This document shows, one piece after another, positions 9,462 to 11,753 of a DNA stretch of 64,000 nt (the stretch's first letter is position 1; each line of letters opens with the position of its first letter). Position numbers and translations under genes: made by a program. The notes below the pieces were generated by a model. The model was not told the origin of the DNA. It searched no databases and saw only the letters and a program-made list of their open reading frames with translations. Source of the stretch: Brucella oryzae (GTDB lineage Bacteria; Pseudomonadota; Alphaproteobacteria; Rhizobiales; Rhizobiaceae); the NCBI GenBank assembly GCA_012103035.1, contig JAAVLL010000002.1, positions 1,372,501-1,436,500 of the forward strand, given 5' to 3'.

Positions 9462-11027
9462 CTATGAAATCGCACCGAGCGACTTCACCTCCACGCCACG
9501 GGCGATTTCGACATGGGACAAGACCGGCAGGGTGGCGAACAGCCGCTCGATAATCATGCGAATATAGGGCCGCGCTTCCGGCGAGGAAACCAGCACGAAG
9601 CGCTCGCCATTGTCGAAATGCTTGCGTATGACGGTGGAGGCTTCCGTGCCGAACTGTTCCAGCAAACGCGGATCGATATCGAATTCGACGATTTCGCCCT
9701 TGGCGTCACGCTTGAGGCTCTGGTGGAAAACCAGATCCCAGCGATTGCCGAGGCGCAGAACGTTCAGCACGCCATTGTCGGACAGATCGCCGCAAATCTG
9801 CTGCGCCATGCGCATGCGGACATGTTCCACGATCATTTCCGGGCGTCGGACGAGCGGCGCGATTTCCGCAATGGCTTCTAGGATCAGATGCAGGTTGCGG
9901 ATGGAAATGCGCTCCGCGAGCAGAAGCTTCAGCACCGCCTGCAAGCCCGAATAGGAAATATGCGACGGGCAGATATCTTCCAGAAGCTTGCGATATTCCG
10001 GCCCCAGACGGTCCAGCAGAATGCGCATATCCTTGTAGGACAGAAGCTGGGCCAGATTGTTGCGCACGATTTCGCTCAAATGCGTCAGCAGGACCGAGAG
10101 ATTGTCCACGGTCATGTAGCCATCGCGGCGCAGATCGGATGCAAAGGTTTCCGGCACGGAATAGGCGCGCATACCGAAGGCCGGTTCGCGCACTTCCTCG
10201 CCCGGAATGGATGGAATCGGGCGGTCACCAAGCACGACAAGCGTTTCACCGACGCGCAGCTCGTGGCTGGCGACCGCCGTGCCGTGTATCTTGATGCGAT
10301 AGCTTTTCGGCGGCAGCGCGATGTCGTCCGTGACCTTGATTTCGGGGATGACGAATCCGTATTCCTGCGCAAACTTGCGGCGCATCTTGTTGACGCGGTG
10401 CGCCAGTTCCTGCTGCGATGCGATCAGGCGGGCGGAAAGCTGCTTGCCGAGGCAAAGCTCGATCTGGTTGGTTTCGAGCGATGCCTTGACGGAATTGCGC
10501 TCCTGCTCTTCCGCTTCGCGCTGCTTCTTGCCGGCCTCATTGGCTTCCGCCTCGCGCTGGCGCGCTTGTCGACGGGCACGGCGATGCCGATGAAGGCCAT
10601 CGCGCCACCCAGCATGAAGAACGGGAACGCTGGCAGGCCAGGCATGATGCCGAGGACGAAGAGCAGCATGGCCGCGACCAGAAGCGCCTTCGGATAGGCG
10701 CCGAGCTGGCCGAAGATCGCCTGATCGGCGGAGCCGCGCGTGCCGCCCTTCGACACCAGAAGACCGGCGGCAAGCGAGACTATCAGGGCCGGAATCTGTG
10801 TGACCAGACCATCGCCGACCGACAGCTTGGTGAAGACATCGGCGGCGTGCGCAATATCCATGTCGTGACGCGTGGCGCCGATGATGATGCCGCCGAAAAT
10901 ATTGACGGCGGTGATGATAAGACCGGCAATCGCATCGCCGCGTACGAATTTCGACGCGCCGTCCATCGAGCCGAAGAAGGAGCTTTCCTCTTCCAGCTCG
11001 CGGCGGCGGCGCTGCGCTTCCTTTCTC
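9462..11027 (-). pseudogene. flhA: flhA, 5'-truncated and joined to flgI
   Basis: FlhA is the export-gate membrane protein with a large cytoplasmic substrate-docking domain. Here only the portion from EAQRRRRELEEESSFFGSMD onward is present (family motif RRRR..FFGSMDGASKFVRGDAIAG). It is followed by the remaining membrane helices (LIITAVNIFGGIIIGA, IPALIVSLAAGLLVS, FVLGIMPGLPAFPFFMLGG) and the complete C-terminal domain ending LSHVEIARGVEVKSLGAIS. Roughly the first 170-200 residues, with the first membrane helices, are missing. Directly upstream lies the 5' part of flgI. A frame change near 10563 fits a lost C. The protein is unlikely to form a working gate. Confidence 0.88.
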
Positions 11028-11753
11028 GCGCTCGACCAGCGCACCATTGGGGATGCGCCCGGAAGTCGGCACACCCTGCGTCACGTTTGCAGCTTCGCCT
11101 TCCGCCGAAAAGCCGGATACGATCATATTGCCCTGCGCCACCGCATAAATCTGGTTGTCAGCACCCATGAGCTGGGTCATGACCAGCGTGCCGCCCTGGA
11201 GCGATGTGGCATCGCCGAGCGACGAAACCGTCACATCGATGCGTGAACCGGCACCGGCAAAGGCGGGCAGGTTGGCGGTCACGATGACGGCTGCGGTATT
11301 CTTGGAACGGGTGGAATTGCGCGGCGCGCTGATGCCAAGATTATCCAGCATGGCGCGCATGGATTGTTCGGTAAACGGCGAATTGCGCAGGCTGTCGCCG
11401 GTGCCCTTGAGGCCGATGACAAGACCATAGCCCACAAGCTGGTTTTCGCGCACGCCCTGAATGGTGGCGATATCCTTCAGGCGCGCAACCGCACTGCCCC
11501 GGCCAAGCTCGGCATAGGCCATTTTCGACGGATCGCCGCCGGAACCGAGCCAATCGGCATCGGCATCCACAGCCGAACCGAATTCGCGCGCATTCTTCGA
11601 CGATTCATCCGCAAAGCCCGCGACGGGCTGAAAAATGAGTGCCAAAGCGGTTATAAGGGCGGCGCAAGTCTTTCGCAGAGCCTGAATCCAAAAGCGGCAG
11701 GCCGAGGCGAAAATGGTGATTTTCGAGTACCGGAGCGCAGTGTGCTTACGCAT
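11028..11753 (-). pseudogene. flgI: flgI, 3'-truncated, joined to flhA
   Basis: FlgI builds the periplasmic P-ring. The fragment includes a signal peptide (CAALITALALIFQPVAGFADE) and the N-terminal half: ARLKDIATIQGVRENQLVGYG, LVIGLKGTGDSLRNSPFTEQS, VIVTANLPAFAGAGSRIDVTV, GVPTSGRIPNGALVERE. After ERE the sequence switches to the middle of flhA, so the C-terminal part of about 150 residues is absent. The ATG at 11753 is the nearest start but lies inside a dispersed repeat, so the true start is uncertain. The FlgI frame leads into the flhA segment one base out of step at GAGAAAGG. Confidence 0.87.

What the first reader, a model, noticed from the sequence alone, without database searches (positions are those of the whole stretch)
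10990..11100. Chimeric junction: 5' flgI fused to 3' flhA, implying loss of a large flagellar block
The left-going sequence reads as FlgI through GVPTSGRIPNGALVERE and then, at about 11023-11028, switches to FlhA from EAQRRRRELEEESSFFGSMD onward. In rhizobial gene order the genes that lie between flgI and flhA include flgH, fliL, fliP, flagellins, motB, hook genes and fliQ; none is in this window. A deletion (or a rearrangement joining two flagellar loci, which Brucella keeps apart on its second chromosome) at a short GAG/GAGAA microhomology would explain it. The organism would lack a P-ring protein and a functional FlhA here and should not assemble a normal flagellum, although many upstream genes are retained. 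A misassembly joining two loci is the main alternative.
Basis: partly seen in the sequence, partly recalled or inferred. Interest (0 to 1): 0.8.

Follow-up and report, generated by a model that had tools for sequence, protein, structure and literature searches.

The report
Flagellar gene block missing from genome
In this Brucella/Ochrobactrum-group genome one piece of about 18,000 bases carrying some eighteen flagellum-locus genes is missing, so the bacterium should not be able to build a flagellum; this is an ordinary kind of gene loss, and the genome assembly is error-rich.

Summary
The junction is present in the assembly. On the minus strand flgI is cut at window 11025/11026 (about 155 of 343 profile positions kept) and runs into flhA (145-656 of 657 kept). 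In five relatives aligned in detail both genes lie on one strand, 18.2-19.4 kb apart, so one deletion explains it. In a relative that block holds 18 genes. Searches of the window's own genome found neither the block nor any flagellin or FliP.

The assembly is rich in indels: essential rpoB and rpoC are split too. Small frameshifts, including one inside the flhA remnant, therefore cannot be trusted. The large deletion is better supported: in the collinear region compared, it is the only loss of 1 kb or more that a second relative's stretch carries. Raw reads are still needed to exclude an assembly artefact.

Flagellar gene decay is known in this genus, and 6 of 35 genus genomes gave no FlgI or FliG match. 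Ordinary; low interest.

The parts
9465..11024 (-). flhA remnant: lacks its 5' part (FHIPEP profile 145-656 of 657 kept); contains a further frame change between 10514 and 10574
11024..11026 (.). deletion junction; five relatives have 18.2-19.4 kb here
11026..11678 (-). flgI 5' part (P-ring profile about 1-155 of 343); 3' part missing
11678..11865 (.). dispersed repeat element between flgI and flgA; absent at this place in the five relatives aligned, present at many other places in this and related genomes
8446..9206 (-). fliR-position gene next to flhA, retained (split in two frames); not scanned against a family library, name from the published gene order
   Evidence: gene order in PMC2743711
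11869..18647 (-). retained genes on the flgI side of the cluster; names flgA, flgG, fliE, flgC, flgB, fliI, flgF come from the published cluster order, not from a family scan here; includes an extra stretch at 14397-15148
22900..25044 (+). retained fliG (FliG_C match at 23612-23935, in split frames) and flhB-position gene (name by order)

Best explanation
A single deletion of about 18-19 kb in the sequenced strain removed the middle of the flagellar cluster, from within flgI to within flhA, by illegitimate recombination between two sequences with little or no similarity. It took 18 flagellar-locus genes, including the MS-ring (fliF), L-ring (flgH), hook and hook-junction proteins, stator parts (motB, motC), flagellin and export-gate parts (fliP, fliQ), and left flgI and flhA as fragments. 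Shown: the structure of the join, the gene content of the block in a relative, and that the block was not found elsewhere in the assembly. Inferred: that the deletion is in the organism and not made by the assembler, the recombination mechanism, and that the strain cannot build a flagellum.
For: Both flanks are collinear with five relatives and the gap closes at one point. These relatives have the two genes 18,169-19,353 bases apart on one strand. In the rows listed, 19 of 23 same-genus relatives show both parts on one contig and strand, about 18.1-19.4 kb apart. Block DNA from G008 finds in the own genome only the two breakpoint ends and dispersed repeats. No flagellin, no FliP; FlhA only as the two pieces at this junction. 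In the collinear part of relative G011 (about 118 kb) three stretches of 1 kb or more lack a match in the own genome, and the flagellar block is the only one that the G009 stretch carries (18,665 bases, 96%; the others 0-1%). The 39-base junction sequence occurs in 1 of 35 genus genomes, the window's own.
Against: The assembly is poor: 69.3% completeness. rpoB and rpoC, essential genes, are split over several frames. 9 of 22 conserved genes found in the window are split, the flhA remnant among them. An assembler working on noisy reads could drop a block. No second genome of the same species and no reads were available. The collinearity control covers one region and one pair of relatives.
Confidence: 0.8

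Rival explanations
1. Assembly artefact: reads of the block were discarded or a chimeric read bridged the two genes, and the organism has an intact cluster.
For: Indel-rich, 69% complete assembly.
Against: Small indels are a different error class from an 18 kb drop. The block was not found elsewhere in the assembly, and no other loss of 1 kb or more of sequence present in both relatives' stretches is seen in the collinear region compared.
Confidence: 0.17
2. Rearrangement (inversion or translocation) that joined two separate flagellar loci, as in classical Brucella where these loci are apart, with the other halves elsewhere.
For: Classical Brucella carry flhA in locus I and flgI in locus II of chromosome II (PMC7410920, passages). 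PMC2743711 (passages) describes the flagellar genes of O. anthropi as essentially two clusters, one ending with fliP and the other with flhA.
Against: In the relatives aligned here the two groups lie side by side in one 18-19 kb stretch, and no other halves were found in the assembly.
Confidence: 0.03

Closest known systems
Flagellar gene decay in classical Brucella (B. melitensis, B. ovis, B. abortus)
   Same: Same genus and genes; flgI and flhA are among the genes reported as broken or impaired in some strains (PMC7410920 Table 4 and PMC2743711 Table 3, passages).
   Different: There the passages report substitutions and small indels in loci that stay in place; here one large deletion joins the two genes, in a genome whose nearest relatives are Ochrobactrum-type species.
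Absence of the system in other species of the genus
   Same: 6 of 35 genus genomes gave no match to FlgI and none to FliG; one of the six, G012, is only 72% complete.
   Different: The window's genome keeps fliG and other parts of the cluster and lacks the middle block.

Membership tests
FlgI P-ring protein (PF02119) | full-length profile match | tested here: not met
   positions 1-155 of 343 only; 27 of 35 genus genomes have 1-343
FlhA export protein (PF00771) | full-length match in one frame | tested here: not met
   145-315 and 296-656 of 657 in two frames; 26 of 35 genus genomes have about 1-656 in one frame
Simple deletion | collinear flanks and block present in relatives | tested here: met
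   5 of 5 relatives aligned
Simple deletion | block not elsewhere in the genome | tested here: met
   (40 of 71 and 40 of 182 candidates scored)
Microhomology-mediated deletion | shared bases at both breakpoints, one copy kept at the join | tested here: inconclusive
   3-4 shared bases in 5 of 5 relatives, one extra base in the window; so short that chance could give it (judgement, no control run), and a one-base sequencing error is possible
Deletion present in the organism | reads crossing the junction | not testable with these tools
   no reads held

The most novel reading that the evidence does not exclude
The strain is a natural, recent intermediate in flagellum loss, on the way from the complete cluster of most Ochrobactrum-type species to the absence of the system in six genomes of the genus, so that loss can start with one large central deletion and not with point changes.
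Probability: 0.15. Interest if true: 0.35.

Novelty: new member of a known kind. Interest (0 to 1): 0.2.

Why it matters
If real, it marks this strain as unable to make a flagellum and adds one more route (a single large deletion) to the known decay of flagellar genes in the genus. Its wider use is as a caution: in this assembly small frameshifts are not evidence of pseudogenes, because essential genes are split as well.

Tried and rejected
Two-locus rearrangement: rejected, since relatives hold both genes in one stretch. Repeat-mediated deletion: the dispersed repeat at 11678-11865 and those in the missing block lie hundreds of bases or more from the breakpoints. The longest exact words shared within 300 bases of both breakpoints in the five relatives are 10-11 bases and are not at the join. 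In-frame FlgI-FlhA fusion protein: rejected by frames.

Indel counting on crude longest ORFs was noisy: against G017 the window gave 2.68 frame-breaking indels per kb, but relative G020, which is intact, gave 3.23, probably because antisense frames were included. I therefore rely on rpoB/rpoC and, second, on the conserved-protein test. That test has a bias: the proteins were chosen because they are intact in G017 and in at least two of G008, G009 and G020, so the zeros for those three are partly by construction. One of its 17 absent items is a 107-aa plus-strand frame without a Pfam match that I do not count as a gene; flagellin and the motE-position gene were not in its list and are counted.

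Literature: three searches listed no paper whose title or abstract start describes this deletion; subscription papers are not covered. Passages, not whole texts, were seen of PMC8781033, PMC2743711 and PMC7410920. A fourth search on long-read indel errors was seen as a listing only.

Full report
Setting. The window is G000:C2:1372501-1436500, in a 4.86 Mb, six-contig assembly with 69.3% completeness. Its nearest relatives by DNA include contigs whose lengths (206,097; 281,094; 2,027,280 bases) equal those of named records of Brucella tritici, B. pseudintermedia and B. cytisi. It therefore belongs to the Ochrobactrum-type part of the genus Brucella; this naming is by matching contig lengths. 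Its own species was not identified. DNA identity to relatives over the flhA and flgI parts is at most 94% in the rows listed.

Observation. Alignment of window 1-16000 with five relatives (G001, G008, G009, G017, G020) breaks at window 11024 | 11025-11026 in 5 of 5. The left part matches flhA and the right part flgI, on the same strand, with 18,169 (G020), 18,353 (G009), 18,531 (G017), 18,736 (G001) and 19,353 (G008) bases between them in the relatives. In the rows, 19 of 23 same-genus relatives show both parts on one contig and strand at a similar distance. A search of annotated plasmid records independently ends flhA homology of a Phyllobacterium and a Sinorhizobium at window 11028. In the family searches FlgI covers profile positions 1-155 of 343, and FlhA covers 145-315 and 296-656 of 657 in two frames. 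The join is a DNA-level chimera, not an in-frame fusion.

What is missing. In relative G017 the block holds: fliQ, flgD, flbT, flaF, flgL, flgK, flgE, a response regulator (in the place where PMC8781033's gene codes put ftcR), fliK, motC, motB, a 235-aa protein without a family match, fliF, flagellin, fliP, fliL, flgH and a 198-aa protein in the published position of motE. That makes 18 genes, plus the 3' part of flgI and the 5' part of flhA (order compared with passages of PMC2743711 and PMC7410920). PMC2743711 describes two clusters in O. anthropi; in G017 the two groups are adjacent, flagellin lying next to fliP. Block DNA from G008 searched against the own genome gave only the two breakpoint ends and dispersed repeats (40 of 71 and 40 of 182 first-look candidates were scored). 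Flagellin and FliP gave no match.

Is it the organism or the assembly? The assembly carries many small indels. rpoB lies in two pieces and rpoC in three, with internal stops, whereas relatives G009 and G007 have each in one frame. Of 39 proteins intact in G017 and at least two of three other relatives, 22 match the window and 9 of these are split, the flhA remnant included. The count is 15 of 39 in G001, another low-completeness assembly, and 0 of 35, 0 of 39 and 0 of 38 in G008, G009 and G020, which took part in choosing the set. Hence the frame change inside the flhA remnant is not evidence of decay. The large loss is different. Of eleven stretches of at least 1 kb in 300 kb of G011 without a match in 304 kb of the own genome, ten are only 0-4% present in a 300 kb stretch of G009, and the flagellar block (18,665 bases) is 96% present there. 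This control has limits: the own stretch covers 45% and the G009 stretch 38% of the G011 stretch, so most of the other absences lie outside the collinear part. Within the collinear part (about 118 kb of G011) there are three absences of 1 kb or more, and the flagellar block is the only one that G009 carries.

Mechanism. The five relatives share 3-4 bases at the two breakpoints, and the window carries one base more than a simple join. That is compatible with end joining or replication slippage at very short or no homology (inference), but the indel-rich assembly does not allow a finer statement. The dispersed repeat near flgI is not at the breakpoint.

Context in the genus. FlgI is full length in 27 of 35 genomes, partial in 2 (the window's own and G002) and without match in 6. 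G002's flgI position (C71:40432-40686) fits the B. thiophenivorans locus L070, which ends at its contig's end at 40,721, so its partial flgI may be only a contig edge. The same 6 genomes lack a FliG match; one of them, G012, is only 72% complete. Full-length FlhA of the main type is found in one frame in 26 of 35 and split at one locus in G001; G012 and G013 have only a more divergent FlhA-family protein. The junction sequence occurs in 1 of 35, the own genome, with up to three mismatches allowed. Classical Brucella are reported with flgI and flhA broken through small changes (passages).

Verdict. A single deletion in the middle of the flagellar cluster is the best reading (0.8), with assembly artefact as the main rival (0.17). 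Predicted outcome, from established knowledge of flagellar assembly: no MS-ring, complete export gate, hook or filament, hence no flagellum. This is an ordinary kind of loss.

Noticed in passing
G000:C1:1130579-1138953: rpoB and rpoC are split over several frames with internal stops, so the assembly is rich in indel errors; frameshifts elsewhere in this window should not be read as pseudogenes.
   Followed up: yes
window 14397-15148: About 0.65-0.75 kb absent from relatives G001 and G008, next to the flgB-position gene; codes a ribbon-helix-helix (CopG-type) protein, possibly an antitoxin.
   Followed up: partly
window 18650-20270: Insert within the flagellar cluster, AT-rich in its middle (G+C about 0.32 at 19000-20000), where relative G017 has about 30 bases; its 180-aa ORF at 19309-19851 matches no Pfam or NCBIfam family.
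   Followed up: partly
window 25641-26479: Transposase in two ORFs (winged HTH and DDE_3), IS630-like by recall.
   Followed up: no
window 11678-11865: Dispersed repeat element, many copies genome-wide, between flgI and flgA; may be one of the Bru-RS repeats of Brucella (name recalled, not tested).
   Followed up: partly
G002:C71:40432-40686 (compare L070): A partial flgI, probably at a contig end, and no FlhA match in that 98% complete genome; possibly another partial flagellar loss.
   Followed up: no
G003:C2, G009:C3, G012:C399, G013:C2; G009:C2:732096, G017:C95, G016:C7, G018:C3: Some genus genomes carry divergent FlhA-family proteins (open frames of about 690-760 aa), suggesting further flagellar or type III-type export systems.
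   Followed up: no
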